DNA of 64,000 nucleotides, taken from contig JAQGGT010000006.1 in assembly GCA_028289245.1 (NCBI GenBank), positions 332,948-396,947 of the forward strand. Reading direction: 5' to 3'. The position numbers were made by a program, and so were the translations under genes. Shown piece after piece: positions 3,647 to 8,075 of this stretch. This stretch comes from Candidatus Saccharimonadota bacterium. GTDB lineage: Bacteria; Patescibacteriota; Saccharimonadia; Saccharimonadales; UBA4665. The notes under the pieces were generated by a model. It saw only the letters and a list, made by a program, of their open reading frames with translations. It ran no database searches and was not told the origin of the DNA. Position 1 is the stretch's first letter; each line of letters begins with the position of its first letter.

Positions 3647-3675
3647 ATTATAGCAAATATTCCTAGTAATGTCAA
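3647..3675 (-). promoter_or_regulatory. consensus sigma70-type promoter of rnj
   Basis: On the minus strand TTGACA (3675-3670) and TATAAT (3652-3647) are separated by exactly 17 bp, a perfect consensus. The predicted start near 3640 gives a roughly 150-nt 5' leader. The promoter contains an 8-bp inverted repeat (TGACATTA 3643-3650 / TAATGTCA 3667-3674), which could be an operator or just a result of the promoter sequence. It is back to back with the promoter of the leader-peptide unit. Confidence 0.8.
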
Positions 3676-3683
3676 TAGGCTTG

Positions 3684-3692
3684 TGCTATACT
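3684..3692 (+). promoter_or_regulatory. extended -10 promoter of the attenuated GNAT-M23 operon
   Basis: TGC-TATACT (TGC 3684-3686, hexamer 3687-3692) lies 6 nt before the leader-peptide ATG at 3699, so transcription should begin at or next to that ATG. No good -35 is seen. The same TGN-TATAMT-6 nt-ATG spacing recurs at many other genes in the window. Confidence 0.65.
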
Positions 3693-3698
3693 ACGGGT

Positions 3699-3755
3699 AT
3701 GTCAAATTTGACTGCATTAGTTTTGAAGAAGAAGAGCTCGAAGCCTCGGCCGTAG
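3699..3755 (+). CDS. leader peptide of a transcription attenuator (18 aa)
   Basis: An 18-codon ORF begins at the predicted transcription start and encodes MSNLTALVLKKKSSKPRP. There is no room for a ribosome-binding site, so it would be translated leaderlessly. Its last codons and stop (TAG 3753-3755) lie inside the left arm (3748-3758) of an 11-bp helix that competes with the downstream terminator. Three consecutive lysine codons (3726-3734) are a possible stalling point. It is too short to be recognised by homology; the call rests on its placement within the attenuator. Confidence 0.6.
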   Translation: MSNLTALVLKKKSSKPRP

Positions 3756-3807
3756 CGCTCTTTTGTTTTACTCAAAAAAGTCCCGCGCTACGGCCCGGGA
3801 CTTTTTT
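3748..3807 (+). terminator. attenuator: terminator with competing antiterminator arm
   Basis: The terminator stem is a perfect 12 bp: AAAAAAGTCCCG (3774-3785) with CGGGACTTTTTT (3796-3807), loop 3786-3795. The loop plus one stem base, GCGCTACGGCC (3785-3795), is perfectly complementary over 11 bp to GGCCGTAGCGC (3748-3758), which overlaps the end of the leader ORF. The two structures are mutually exclusive, since pairing 3748-3758 with 3785-3795 traps the left terminator arm. A ribosome finishing the leader ORF would cover 3748-3758 and favour termination; a ribosome stalled early would leave it free and allow read-through into 3833. The pairing is seen directly; the regulatory logic is inferred. 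Confidence 0.75.
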
Positions 3808-3832
3808 ATTTGTGTAATTCTAAGGAAACTAT

Positions 3833-4852
3833 ATGGCAAGTTCTGTTGTTAACGAAGCGAGCTCTACTAGCTCGATTGGGGCGGCCTGGCCGCCGGCGCC
3901 AGCCGCCTTTGAACGGCTGCGCGGGATATTTAATCAAGGTATTGTTGAGACCGCCGGCGACTGTGCATCGTTTGCTGACATCTTTCAGTACTACTGTGCT
4001 GAACTGGCCGGCCCAACGCCCCCAACAAGGCTCAGCCTGCGGCTGGTAACGTACGGGCGCCAGTTACGTCTATTGGAAAGCCTGGGCGTCACCATCGAAG
4101 CCGCCATCCCGCTGGCCAACACTGAACCGGAAATGGTACTCGCCTACGCCGCCAATAACCTTACCGGCCGAGAAGCGGGAGAACAGTCATTGGCTGTGCA
4201 TCGTCGGTTGCTTCAGACGGTTGGTGAGCAACGCCTGCGTGACACGCGTGACAAACGAAAGCTCTTAATCGAAGCCGGCTTCATGCCCGGCGCAGTCGAG
4301 CGCCAGCAGGAGACTGTCGATTGTACCCAGCTAGAACGGCAATTTTTGGAAATGTATGCCATTTTCGGCTATGACATACATGATGTGCGGCAAATACTTA
4401 CTAGTCCCACCAACACCATTGTCTACGCCGCCAACCAGGATGGAATAGTTTCGACGGCCATGGCTGAACGCGCCAGTATCCCGATAGCCGGCTTTGGAAC
4501 CCTTGAGCTGGCCGAGATTACCGAAGCTTCGACCCGGCCTGATTACCGCCAGCGGGGGCTCTACAAAGCAGTGTCTGGCTTGCTTATCGAGCAACTGCTC
4601 ATGCGCCAAGCGATTGATCCGGTGCATGCCCTATACGGCGAGAGCAACCTGACGATGCCGGGTGTAATTATTGCTAGCTATGAGAACGGTCGCAATTTTA
4701 GTTACTTCGACCACGCTCGATTTAGTGTCCAAAATCCTAACTTTGGCATCTTGCAGCAAAACTTTAGTATCGATGACGGTCGCGAGCAGCGGCCTTACAA
4801 TGATTTTGCCGTGTCCTATGTTCCGCTACAATCAGAGGCAGTTACGCTATGA
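3833..4852 (+). CDS. GNAT-family acetyltransferase-like protein
   Basis: This 339-residue protein has a C-terminal half resembling a GNAT fold: 'EITEASTRPDYRQRGLYKAV' carries the acetyl-CoA-binding motif A pattern (R-x-x-G-x-Y/A) after a beta strand, at about residues 230-250. The N-terminal 170 residues are helical and unrecognised. Substrate unknown. The start has an AAGGAAAC site 4 nt upstream. It is the first large gene after the attenuator and overlaps the M23 gene by ATGA, so the two should be translated together. No signal peptide is visible. Confidence 0.55.
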   Translation: MASSVVNEASSTSSIGAAWPPAPAAFERLRGIFNQGIVETAGDCASFADIFQYYCAELAGPTPPTRLSLRLVTYGRQLRLLESLGVTIEAAIPLANTEPEMVLAYAANNLTGREAGEQSLAVHRRLLQTVGEQRLRDTRDKRKLLIEAGFMPGAVERQQETVDCTQLERQFLEMYAIFGYDIHDVRQILTSPTNTIVYAANQDGIVSTAMAERASIPIAGFGTLELAEITEASTRPDYRQRGLYKAVSGLLIEQLLMRQAIDPVHALYGESNLTMPGVIIASYENGRNFSYFDHARFSVQNPNFGILQQNFSIDDGREQRPYNDFAVSYVPLQSEAVTL

Positions 4853-5535
4853 CCTACTTCACCGAACCGCTCCAAAACTTGTTTACCGACTCGCGGAGGC
4901 TCATCCTAAATTTCGACGATATCCCGGCGGATACGCCTCCAGCCGAGAGCATCGCTAGTTATTTTGAGGCTATGACGCAAAAAGGCCTAAATCCTCGTCT
5001 GCCGGAGCACCGCCAGCAGTTTAACGACCAGCTGTTAGCGAGCACGGGTAAGCGCTACTTGGTCAGTCAGTACGGCGAAGACCGGCGCTCCATGTTGGCC
5101 GGCTCGGCCATTGCCGAAGCAGGCCGCACCATCCACCTCGGCATCGATATCTTTAGCAAAGATTTGGAGCCGGTGCTGGCGCCCTGCGACGGCACGATTG
5201 TCCGCGTTGGTCGCGAGCCGGAGTCGCATAGCTTTGGCAATTACCTCATTTTGCGGCCGGCCAACAAGCAGCTGCCATTGGTCTTCTTGGGCCATCTGAG
5301 TGCCGACTTGCCGCAACCTGGCCTCGTGACGGTCGGCCAGACAATTGCTAGGCTTGGTGATTACCATGACAACGAAAATGGTGGTTGGTCGCGGCATCTC
5401 CACTTGCAGCTGCTCAGCGAGTTGCCACCCGAAATTGAGGTGCCGCTTGGATACTCCAGCCAGCAAGCCTTTGCCGAAAACAGTCAGGCGTACCCCGATC
5501 CGGTGCCGTACTTTCTGGACTGGGATCTACAGTAG
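4849..5535 (+). CDS. M23-family metallopeptidase-like protein
   Basis: The LytM/M23 fold is recognised from HLGIDIF (first zinc ligands HxxxD, near 101-107), 'APCDGTIVRVG' and the HLHLQ motif near 181-185 (HxH). M23 enzymes usually cut peptidoglycan cross-links. Here no signal peptide or membrane segment is visible in 228 residues, so a cytoplasmic role or a non-canonical substrate is possible. It starts inside the stop codon of the GNAT-like gene (ATGA overlap), which suggests a joint function under the same attenuator. Confidence 0.75.
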   Translation: MTYFTEPLQNLFTDSRRLILNFDDIPADTPPAESIASYFEAMTQKGLNPRLPEHRQQFNDQLLASTGKRYLVSQYGEDRRSMLAGSAIAEAGRTIHLGIDIFSKDLEPVLAPCDGTIVRVGREPESHSFGNYLILRPANKQLPLVFLGHLSADLPQPGLVTVGQTIARLGDYHDNENGGWSRHLHLQLLSELPPEIEVPLGYSSQQAFAENSQAYPDPVPYFLDWDLQ

Positions 5536-6332: not shown

Positions 6333-7244
6333 ATGAAAAAGCGCAGCATATACCCATCGGTGATTTTACTGACACTTGTCTTTGCGCTTGGTTTCAACGG
6401 AAGTGTTTCAGCGGCGGCCACACCAGGGCTGGGGCAGGCTGCTAGTTTTGGCATATTATCGAATACTTATACTAATACCGTAAGTGGGACCACGCTTAAT
6501 GGCGATTTAGGGTACACCACCGGCCCAGTCGTGGCTGCGACAGTTAATGGAGCGCTTTACGTTCCCCCGTCCAGTACTTATACCCAAGCCGGGATAGATC
6601 AAGGAACAGCGTTGGCAAATCTGAATGCCCAGCCGTGTACCTCTATCGGAGCTATAGTTGCTCTCGATGCGTATGATGTTGATGGCGCTGGACCACTGGC
6701 GCCCGGCACCTTCCCGCCGGGCTGTTACTCGAGCACCGGCGCCATGAATATAACCACCGGCACCACAGTTACGCTTAGCGGCACGGGTACGTACGTATTT
6801 AGGCCTGGCGGAGCCCTTACGAGCGGAGCAAACTCTGTTGTTAGTCTAGCGGGTGGCGCTTCGGCCTGTGATATCTTTTGGGCACCGGTAGCGGCTACTA
6901 CCCTAGGCGCTAACTCGACGTTCGCGGGAACTGATGTTGACGCCTCGGGTATTACCATCGGTAATACGGTCACCTGGACCGGGCATGCCTTAGCGTTTGG
7001 TGGCACCGTGACAACCACTCGCGATACGATTAATGTGCCGTCATGTACCGCCGCTGCGCCTGGATCGGGAGCCGGTACAACCGGTTCATCCAGTACAAGC
7101 AGCTCAGCCAGTGCCGTACCTGGCATGCCAGATACCGGCTTTGCTCCTGGAGGAAACAGTAGCATCGTATGGAAAGTGGTTACCCCAGCCGTGGCTCTTA
7201 TTGCCGTAACCACACTGTATCTTGCGCGAAAGAAGTGGGCTTAA
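6333..7244 (+). CDS. ice-binding-like (DUF3494) surface protein with MPDTG sorting signal
   Basis: This secreted 303-residue protein has a signal peptide at 1-28 (MKKR, hydrophobic core, VSAAA). The mature region matches the DUF3494 ice-binding beta-solenoid pattern: AASFGILSNTYTNT near the start, NGDLGYTTG, 'TTGTTVTLSGTGTYVFR', and 'TTLGANSTFAGT' near the end. A Ser/Gly/Thr-rich linker follows, then MPDTG (265-269), a membrane segment and the basic tail RKKWA, which together form a sortase sorting signal. The next gene is a sortase. In non-polar bacteria DUF3494 domains may act as adhesins rather than antifreeze; which applies here cannot be seen. Confidence 0.8.
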   Translation: MKKRSIYPSVILLTLVFALGFNGSVSAAATPGLGQAASFGILSNTYTNTVSGTTLNGDLGYTTGPVVAATVNGALYVPPSSTYTQAGIDQGTALANLNAQPCTSIGAIVALDAYDVDGAGPLAPGTFPPGCYSSTGAMNITTGTTVTLSGTGTYVFRPGGALTSGANSVVSLAGGASACDIFWAPVAATTLGANSTFAGTDVDASGITIGNTVTWTGHALAFGGTVTTTRDTINVPSCTAAAPGSGAGTTGSSSTSSSASAVPGMPDTGFAPGGNSSIVWKVVTPAVALIAVTTLYLARKKWA

Positions 7245-7253
7245 GGCCCACTA

Positions 7254-8075
7254 GTGTCAGCTGGAGCTACTACCGATAACTTCCTGCCAATAGCCAAAGG
7301 CAAGAGCTCATATCAGCCGCGGCCCTCGCTATATTCTCGTCGACGGGTCTTTACCCTCCCCGCGTCAAGCCCCGGACTACTCATTAGTGATGTTTTCCCA
7401 GCGCAGCGTCTGGCGCCCGTACCCCAACCCCCACCTCACCTCAAACCTCGACCTCGTCGCAAACCCGTCGTTCTGGTGCTCAGTCTAGCGGTTTCCCTTG
7501 TCGTAGTTGGCCTCTTATTTAACTCTCAGTCGGTGCAATCGCGAGTGGCGCCGCCTCGTTCGCTTTTGGCGGTGGCAAAAGAAAGCGCCACGCCGGTGGC
7601 GCAAACCGCGCCACGCCCGGTCGGTGTCGGCTTGCCGGCGCGGCTCAAGATCCCTAAGCTGAAAATCGATGCCAGTATGGATTACGTGGGGCTCACTGCT
7701 TCAGGCGACCTGGATGTGCCCAAGAACCCTGCAAATGCCGCCTGGTATACCGCAGGACCGCGCCCAGGTGAGAACGGCAGCGCAGTCATCGACGGTCATT
7801 TCGGCTGGAAAGACAACATCCCGGCGGTATTCGACAATCTACATACCTTACAGAAGGGCGATTTACTAGAGGTAGAGGATAGGAATGGCTTGACCACCAC
7901 CTTTGTGGTGCGAGAGCTTCGTAAGTTTGGTTCGAGTGAAGTCGCCCCCGAGATCTTTAAGTCCGGTGACGGCAGGGCTCATCTTAATATAATTACCTGC
8001 AACGGGAGCTGGAACAATGCCCAAAAAAATTACTCCAATCGCCTCGTAGTTTTCACTGATAAAATAACACAGTAG
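7254..8075 (+). CDS. class E/F-type sortase
   Basis: Sortases cleave an LPxTG-like signal and attach the protein to cell-wall peptide or to another surface acceptor. The 273-residue protein has a proline-rich cytoplasmic N-terminus, a membrane segment at about 68-90 and the catalytic domain. Likely catalytic residues are His182 (VIDGHFGW), Cys249 (NIITCNG) and Arg263 (YSNRLVVF). The start is a GTG 10 bp after the ice-binding gene. Pairing with that single substrate suggests a dedicated sortase specific for MPDTG, but LPATG/LVATG proteins further along may also use it. Confidence 0.88.
   Translation: MSAGATTDNFLPIAKGKSSYQPRPSLYSRRRVFTLPASSPGLLISDVFPAQRLAPVPQPPPHLKPRPRRKPVVLVLSLAVSLVVVGLLFNSQSVQSRVAPPRSLLAVAKESATPVAQTAPRPVGVGLPARLKIPKLKIDASMDYVGLTASGDLDVPKNPANAAWYTAGPRPGENGSAVIDGHFGWKDNIPAVFDNLHTLQKGDLLEVEDRNGLTTTFVVRELRKFGSSEVAPEIFKSGDGRAHLNIITCNGSWNNAQKNYSNRLVVFTDKITQ

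What the first reader, a model, noticed from the sequence alone, without database searches (positions are those of the whole stretch)
3684..3835. Leaderless leader peptide with a terminator/antiterminator switch ahead of a GNAT-M23 operon
Seen: an extended -10 places the transcript start at the ATG of an 18-codon ORF with three lysine codons in a row. Its stop codon lies inside GGCCGTAGCGC (3748-3758), perfectly complementary over 11 bp to 3785-3795, while 3774-3785/3796-3807 form a perfect 12-bp terminator. The two structures exclude each other. Known: ribosome-mediated attenuators use this geometry to sense amino-acid supply or translation inhibitors. Inference: completed translation blocks the antiterminator and terminates, while early stalling (for example by an antibiotic or lysyl-tRNA shortage) gives read-through. 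I know of no attenuator described for a GNAT-M23 pair or one using a leaderless leader ORF.
Basis: partly seen in the sequence, partly recalled or inferred. Interest (0 to 1): 0.8.

Follow-up and report, generated by a model that had tools for sequence, protein, structure and literature searches.

The report
Lysine-sensing leader switch in Saccharibacteria
A short stretch of RNA in very small, host-dependent bacteria (Saccharibacteria) appears to measure lysine supply by letting a ribosome stall on lysine codons and thereby switching on lysine genes, a lysine version of the classic tryptophan attenuator that I could not find described before.

Summary
Searching 393 genomes of the order found 17 such elements in 16 genomes of 7 families, all Saccharibacteria where named. 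Eleven precede lysine genes: dapA (2), lysC (1), ORF-lysA (2), class II lysS (4) and the unrelated class I lysyl-tRNA synthetase (2). Others precede GNAT-M23 pairs (3, including the window), an M23 gene, an unknown ORF and a contig end. The antiterminator helix covaries (7 of 10 pairs change on both sides; 18 double changes against 5.7 in shuffles), even when the leader stop codon changes between UAG, UGA and UAA. Lysine makes up 51 of 275 leader residues. A third helix inside the Lys codons completes the trp-type three-state design. Best reading: a ribosome-mediated transcription attenuator sensing lysyl-tRNA. Amino-acid attenuators and leaderless leader ORFs are known; a lysine-specific one, or one in Patescibacteria, was not found in the literature library or Rfam. 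The GNAT-M23 genomes lack dapA and lysA, so that pair may serve lysine acquisition (inference).

The parts
3684..3692 (+). extended -10 promoter element TGCTATACT, 6 nt before the leader ATG, so the transcript should start at or within a base or two of the ATG
   Evidence: sequence; in 14 of 17 members a -10-like hexamer lies 3-11 nt before the start codon (shuffles: mean 5.7, maximum 11 of 17) and none has a Shine-Dalgarno
3699..3755 (+). leader ORF, MSNLTALVLKKKSSKPRP*, apparently leaderless
   Evidence: sequence; 17 leader ORFs of 15-19 codons with conserved Lys codons before the stop
3726..3743 (+). regulatory Lys codons (AAG at 3726, 3729, 3732 and 3741)
   Evidence: Lys is 51 of 275 leader residues, 50 of them in the last nine codons
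3732..3737 (+). segment 1 (AAGAGC), pairs with 3757-3762 (GCTCTT): anti-antiterminator, overlaps the Lys codons
   Evidence: folds; own pairing stronger than swapped pairing among members, 18 of 20000 permutations
3748..3758 (+). segment 2 (GGCCGTAGCGC), includes the leader stop codon; 5' strand of the antiterminator
3757..3762 (+). segment 2, 3' part (GCTCTT), partner of segment 1
3774..3785 (+). terminator, 5' arm (AAAAAAGTCCCG)
3785..3795 (+). segment 3 (GCGCTACGGCC): terminator loop and 3' strand of the antiterminator
   Evidence: 94.1% of cells paired with segment 2 in 17 members, 18 double-sided changes
3796..3807 (+). segment 4: terminator 3' arm and U-tract (CGGGACTTTTTT)
3823..3826 (+). 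Shine-Dalgarno-like AGGA, 6 nt before the GNAT start codon (the leader ORF has none)
   Evidence: sequence
3833..4852 (+). first controlled gene: GNAT-fold protein, 339 aa
   Evidence: weak Pfam PF13527 match below cut-off; GNAT matches by fold, low-confidence model
4849..5535 (+). second controlled gene: M23 (LytM-type) metallopeptidase homologue, 228 aa, overlaps GNAT by 4 bases
   Evidence: Pfam PF01551; NCBIfam NF004799 at 5e-18, below its cut-off; fold match to LytM and lysostaphin

Best explanation
It is a trp-type, ribosome-mediated transcription attenuator that senses charged lysyl-tRNA. Transcription starts at the leader ATG and a ribosome starts on the leaderless end. If lysyl-tRNA is scarce, the ribosome stalls on the AAG codons and covers segment 1; segment 2 (around the stop codon) is free and captures segment 3, the future terminator loop, so the terminator does not close and the genes are transcribed. 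If lysine is plentiful, the ribosome reaches the stop codon and covers segment 2, so the terminator closes. If the leader is not translated, segment 1 pairs with segment 2 and termination again follows. Shown by sequence: all segments, their conservation, covariation and gene context. Inferred: start point, stalling, termination and the direction of control. In the window the element controls a GNAT-M23 pair, probably a lysine-acquisition function in a lysine auxotroph.
For: Gene context: 11 of 17 elements precede lysine genes: dapA (L009, L021), lysC (L066, with lysS and lysA downstream), ORF-lysA (L022, L053), class II lysS (L024, L025, L029, L059), class I LysRS (L058, L068). dapA occurs in only 2 of the 16 genomes and in both directly behind the element. 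Covariation of 2:3: 94.1% of cells paired, 7 of 10 pairs with double-sided changes, 18 double changes against 5.7 in shuffles (0 of 500); slid registers pair 23-68%. The stop codon is UAG (15), UGA (L053) or UAA (L059) and the terminator loop compensates. Own 2:3 pairing beats swapped pairing in all 20000 permutations; 1:2 in all but 18. Lys is 51 of 275 leader residues. Leaderless layout. A pattern scan of about 85,000 species genomes gave 8 hits; the 4 with leader ORF and terminator are all Saccharibacteria. No riboswitch or T-box at these loci.
Against: No transcript, Term-seq or ribosome data. Six members (L053, L058, L059, L060, L066, L068) were found with a model that rewards 2:3 pairing, so their pairing is not independent evidence, though their gene context is. 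The lysS-type leaders have only two Lys codons, one of them 4 codons before the stop, where a stalled ribosome would cover part of segment 2. The antiterminator captures the terminator loop rather than a stem arm, so exclusion is not proven. L024 and L025 do not prefer their own 2:3 partner, and L068 has no clear -10 near its ATG. Shuffle and swap tests do not correct for relatedness.
Confidence: 0.9

Rival explanations
1. A general translation-stress or antibiotic-sensing attenuator of the erm or bmrC type: a drug stalls the ribosome early in the leader and the downstream GNAT (perhaps a drug acetyltransferase) is induced.
For: The same geometry is used by drug-inducible attenuators (for example bmrCD, PMC4191407). 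Weak fold matches of the GNAT include aminoglycoside acetyltransferases.
Against: The leader's conserved feature is Lys codons, not a drug-arrest motif, and most other members control lysine biosynthesis or lysyl-tRNA synthetases. The aminoglycoside acetyltransferase matches are generic GNAT-fold matches on a low-confidence model (pLDDT 58).
Confidence: 0.04
2. The leader RNA is read directly by uncharged tRNA(Lys), lysine or a protein (T-box or riboswitch-like), and the short ORF is incidental.
For: Lysine genes are riboswitch targets in other phyla (PMC1262725); T-box control of lysyl-tRNA synthetase genes is known in Firmicutes (own knowledge).
Against: No Rfam T-box or lysine riboswitch at 17 loci. 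The ORF keeps its frame, Lys codons and stop position while its 5' half varies freely, and stop-codon changes are compensated. There is little room for an aptamer between a start at the ATG and the terminator.
Confidence: 0.03
3. The terminated leader is mainly a small RNA or a tiny peptide gene acting in trans, like rnTrpL/peTrpL of S. meliloti, and attenuation is secondary.
For: The terminated product would be a leaderless mini-mRNA like rnTrpL (PMC10117765, PMC7298713).
Against: The peptide's N-terminal half is not conserved; what is conserved are Lys codons and RNA pairing in cis. Not exclusive of attenuation.
Confidence: 0.02

Closest known systems
trp, his, leu, thr, phe and ilv attenuators of Proteobacteria (Vitreschak et al. 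2004, cited in PMC1262725)
   Same: Short leader ORF with codons of the regulated amino acid, overlapping 1:2, 2:3 and 3:4 helices, intrinsic terminator, biosynthetic or tRNA-synthetase target genes
   Different: Amino acid is lysine, host is Saccharibacteria, leader ORF is leaderless, antiterminator captures the terminator loop and contains the leader stop codon, one element type serves unrelated genes in different genomes
Sinorhizobium meliloti trpL attenuator (rnTrpL; PMC10117765, PMC7298713)
   Same: Transcription attenuation with a leaderless leader ORF starting at the first transcribed base
   Different: Tryptophan, Alphaproteobacteria; no sequence relation expected (not tested)
Leaderless polycysteine ORFs of mycobacteria (Canestrari et al. 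2020, cited in PMC9094748 and PMC9031893)
   Same: Leaderless short ORFs with repeated codons of one amino acid upstream of genes that respond to that amino acid
   Different: Cysteine; no intrinsic terminator of this kind was described in what I could read (the original paper was not read)
Lysine riboswitch (L-box) and T-box control of lysine genes
   Same: Same kind of target genes and same physiological signal
   Different: Sensor is a ribosome on a leader ORF, not an aptamer; no Rfam match here
PRK06148 / NF004799 proteins (1015-position family; positions 384-568 match the window's M23 protein)
   Same: Best NCBIfam model for the M23 protein of the window (5e-18)
   Different: Stand-alone protein here, score far below the cut-off; that the family also carries kinase and class III aminotransferase domains and could link to hydroxylysine metabolism is from memory, not tested

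Membership tests
ribosome-mediated amino-acid attenuator | short leader ORF rich in codons of the regulated amino acid | tested here: met
   17 ORFs of 15-19 codons, Lys 51 of 275 residues, 2-4 Lys per leader near the stop; translation itself not tested
ribosome-mediated amino-acid attenuator | intrinsic terminator between leader ORF and first gene | tested here: met
   stem followed by or ending in a U-tract in all 17
ribosome-mediated amino-acid attenuator | antiterminator overlapping the terminator and within reach of the ribosome | tested here: met
   2:3 helix contains the stop codon and covaries; it overlaps the terminator loop, stem overlap is small
ribosome-mediated amino-acid attenuator | segment 1:2 that restores termination without translation | tested here: met
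   predicted in all 17, swap test 18 of 20000; support weaker than for 2:3
ribosome-mediated amino-acid attenuator | controlled genes act on the same amino acid | tested here: met
   dapA, lysC, lysA, LysRS I and II in 11 of 17; for the window's own GNAT-M23 pair it is only inferred
ribosome-mediated amino-acid attenuator | read-through rises on starvation for that amino acid | not testable with these tools
   needs an experiment
lysine riboswitch | match to the lysine aptamer model | tested here: not met
   no Rfam match at gathering score at any locus
T-box | match to the T-box model | tested here: not met
   no Rfam match at gathering score
Rfam Leu_leader (RF00512) and Thr_leader (RF00506) | score at or above the family threshold | tested here: not met
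   24.3 and 22.5 bits against thresholds of 50 and 55

The most novel reading that the evidence does not exclude
A single lineage of leaderless lysine attenuators has been moved among unrelated lysine genes within Saccharibacteria, works by capturing the terminator loop with the leader's stop-codon region, and marks the GNAT-M23 pair as a previously unknown lysine acquisition or salvage system used by lysine auxotrophs that lack dapA and lysA.
Probability: 0.35. Interest if true: 0.8.

Novelty: new variant of a known kind. Interest (0 to 1): 0.72.

Why it matters
Lysine genes are usually the territory of riboswitches and T-boxes; I found no described leader-peptide attenuator for lysine and none of any kind in Patescibacteria. 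If true, ultra-reduced, host-dependent bacteria control amino-acid genes by translation-coupled attenuation, and the element is a sequence tag for finding lysine genes of unknown type. The GNAT-M23 pair and several unknown ORFs ahead of lysS and lysA become candidates for lysine supply. It is directly testable in E. coli or in cultured Saccharibacteria.

Tried and rejected
Same-genus genomes lack the GNAT gene, so a close alignment was impossible. The genome-contig search with the GNAT protein found nothing. Model R1 hits L023, L026-L028 and L030-L042 and R2 hit L067 were judged by eye to be chance terminators without a leader and 2:3 helix. Four pattern hits in Planctomycetota, Dyella, Verrucomicrobia and Dehalococcoidia show no leader plus terminator and were rejected. 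No R2 match at E<=0.005 outside the order among 192 genomes drawn from the phylum. The window genome's own lysS has no such element. Antibiotic-sensing, riboswitch and T-box readings were considered and set aside. A near full-length fold match of the GNAT protein to aminoacyl-tRNA-dependent peptide synthases (9wqx) was not used: TM-score 0.30 on a model with pLDDT 58.

Full report
WHAT IS THERE. An extended -10 (TGCTATACT, 3684-3692) lies 6 nt before the ATG at 3699 of an 18-codon ORF, MSNLTALVLKKKSSKPRP*. The stop codon sits inside 3748-3758, which is perfectly complementary to 3785-3795; 3774-3785 and 3796-3807 form a perfect 12-bp terminator whose loop is the second strand of that complement. 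In 5000 dinucleotide shuffles of the region an inverted repeat of 11 bp or more appeared 8 times and of 12 bp twice. The downstream GNAT gene has a Shine-Dalgarno-like AGGA, the leader has none. The gene upstream is divergent (RNase J), so the terminator is a premature one. The terminator form (-37.5 kcal/mol) and the antiterminator form (-36.7, on a slightly shorter sequence) are nearly equal in predicted energy.

RELATIVES. The GNAT gene has few relatives; two of them (L003, 53% identity; L004, 46%) carry the same leader. A pattern search over 393 genomes of the order turned up a fourth copy directly in front of dapA (L009). A covariance model holding only the terminator as structure (R1) found seven more; a second model on the 2:3 helix (R2) found six more. 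In all there are 17 elements in 16 genomes, 15 genera and 7 families of one order; about 4% of the sampled genomes of the order have one, and 192 genomes drawn from the phylum gave nothing outside the order. A scan of about 85,000 species genomes with an exact pattern gave 8 hits; 4 have a leader and terminator, all named Candidatus Saccharibacteria (palsa_1325, RYN_420, HKST-UBA76, Gw_Eff_bin_463), and the other 4 do not.

GENE CONTEXT. Eleven elements precede lysine genes. dapA: L009, L021 (DHDPS). Aspartokinase: L066, with lysS and lysA further along the same contig. ORF then lysA: L022, L053 (best NCBIfam model TIGR01048, below its cut-off). ORF(s) then class II lysS: L024, L025, L029, L059. 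Class I LysRS: L068 directly, L058 after a short ORF. That the same leader stands before two unrelated lysyl-tRNA synthetases is the strongest single pointer to the signal. The remaining six: GNAT-M23 (window, L003, L004), M23 alone (L020), an unknown 258-aa ORF (L019), and a contig end (L060). dapA occurs in only two of the 16 genomes and in both it is under the element. The GNAT-M23 and M23 genomes (G000, G211, G066, G098) have neither dapA nor a lysA match, so they look like lysine auxotrophs; G211 is only 88% complete.

COVARIATION. On the 17-member alignment (A6) the 2:3 helix pairs in 94.1% of cells; 7 of 10 pairs have changes on both sides and 18 cells are double changes, against 5.7 in shuffles (0 of 500); sliding the partner by 1-3 columns drops pairing to 23-68%. 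On the first 11 members (the four starting ones and seven found with R1, which does not reward 2:3 pairing) the result is the same in kind: 89.3%, 7 double changes against 2.7, 0 of 500. Because the leader's stop codon lies in the helix, changes of stop codon are compensated in the terminator loop: UAG/CUA in most, UGA/UCA in L053, UAA/UUA in L059. Predicted own 2:3 pairing averages -24.4 kcal/mol against -19.1 (sd 0.96) for swapped partners, never reached in 20000 permutations; L024 and L025 are exceptions individually. A third helix, segment 1 in the Lys codons with the 3' part of segment 2, is predicted in every member and beats swapped partners in all but 18 of 20000 permutations. These tests do not correct for relatedness.

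LEADER ORF. The N-terminal halves differ freely; the C-terminal halves keep 2-4 Lys codons (51 Lys of 275 residues, 50 in the last nine codons). A -10-like hexamer lies 3-11 nt before the start codon in 14 of 17 (shuffles: mean 5.7, maximum 11) and no leader has a Shine-Dalgarno, so leaderless or near-leaderless initiation is a conserved feature.

MECHANISM (inferred). A ribosome stalled with an AAG of 3726-3734 in its A site would reach to about 3738-3746 (general knowledge of ribosome footprints), covering segment 1 and leaving 3748-3758 free to capture the terminator loop as it emerges; at the stop codon it would cover 3748-3758 and let the terminator close; without translation 1:2 forms and the terminator closes. 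This is the trp logic with lysine. Two features are unusual: the antiterminator captures the terminator loop, overlapping the stem by only one base in the window, so exclusion must be steric and kinetic; and the leader's stop codon is itself part of the antiterminator.

THE GNAT-M23 PAIR. The M23 protein keeps the histidines and aspartate of the M23 metal site (H96, D100, H183/H185 invariant in four relatives), has no obvious signal peptide by eye, and matches LytM-type M23 enzymes by fold (model pLDDT 68). Its best NCBIfam model is NF004799 (PRK06148), positions 384-568 of 1015; from memory that family is a kinase-M23-aminotransferase fusion, which might hint at hydroxylysine chemistry, untested. 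The GNAT protein is a weak PF13527 match with a low-confidence model. Their role in lysine supply is inferred from regulon membership only.

KNOWN OR NEW. Ribosome-mediated attenuators for other amino acids are classical. Leaderless leader ORFs have precedents in S. meliloti trpL (PMC10117765, PMC7298713) and mycobacterial polycysteine ORFs (Canestrari 2020, via PMC9094748, PMC9031893). A comparative study lists lysine as controlled by the L-box riboswitch elsewhere and found no lysine attenuator in Actinobacteria (PMC1262725). Searches for a lysine attenuator or lysine leader peptide found none, a search for Saccharibacteria with leader peptides found none relevant, and Rfam has no match. The library lacks most subscription papers, so absence is not proof.

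Noticed in passing
window 3647-3675, strand -: A 12-of-12 consensus promoter (TTGACA, 17, TATAAT, with TG before the -10) for the divergent RNase J gene; its -35 lies just upstream of the leader's -10, so the two promoters are packed back to back.
   Followed up: no
L024, L025, L029, L059 (minus strand, between element and lysS): A family of unknown small proteins (about 31-49% identical) sits between the attenuator and class II lysS in four genomes.
   Followed up: partly
L022 1637-2299, L053 1616-2314: A second family of unknown ORFs (30% identical over 171 aa; no Pfam or NCBIfam match) sits between the attenuator and lysA; in both genomes class I LysRS lies just upstream of the attenuator.
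   Followed up: partly
upstream of lysS in L047, L068, L082, L089, L090, L091, L100: By eye, lysyl-tRNA synthetase genes (class I or II) often follow a greA-like gene end in these genomes; in L047 (=L025) and L068 the attenuator lies between the two.
   Followed up: partly
L060 (G037:C27): Genome G037 holds two copies, one before ORFs-lysS-lysA and one before a different ORF cut by the contig end; the second has an 11-bp 2:3 helix that differs at several pairs.
   Followed up: partly
L009 1673-2081, strand -: tmRNA gene directly upstream of the dapA attenuator in G024 (Rfam RF00023).
   Followed up: no
window 6333-8075: Ice-binding-like protein (PF11999) with a C-terminal hydrophobic anchor by eye, followed at 7254-8075 by an ORF that looks sortase-like by eye (not tested).
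   Followed up: no
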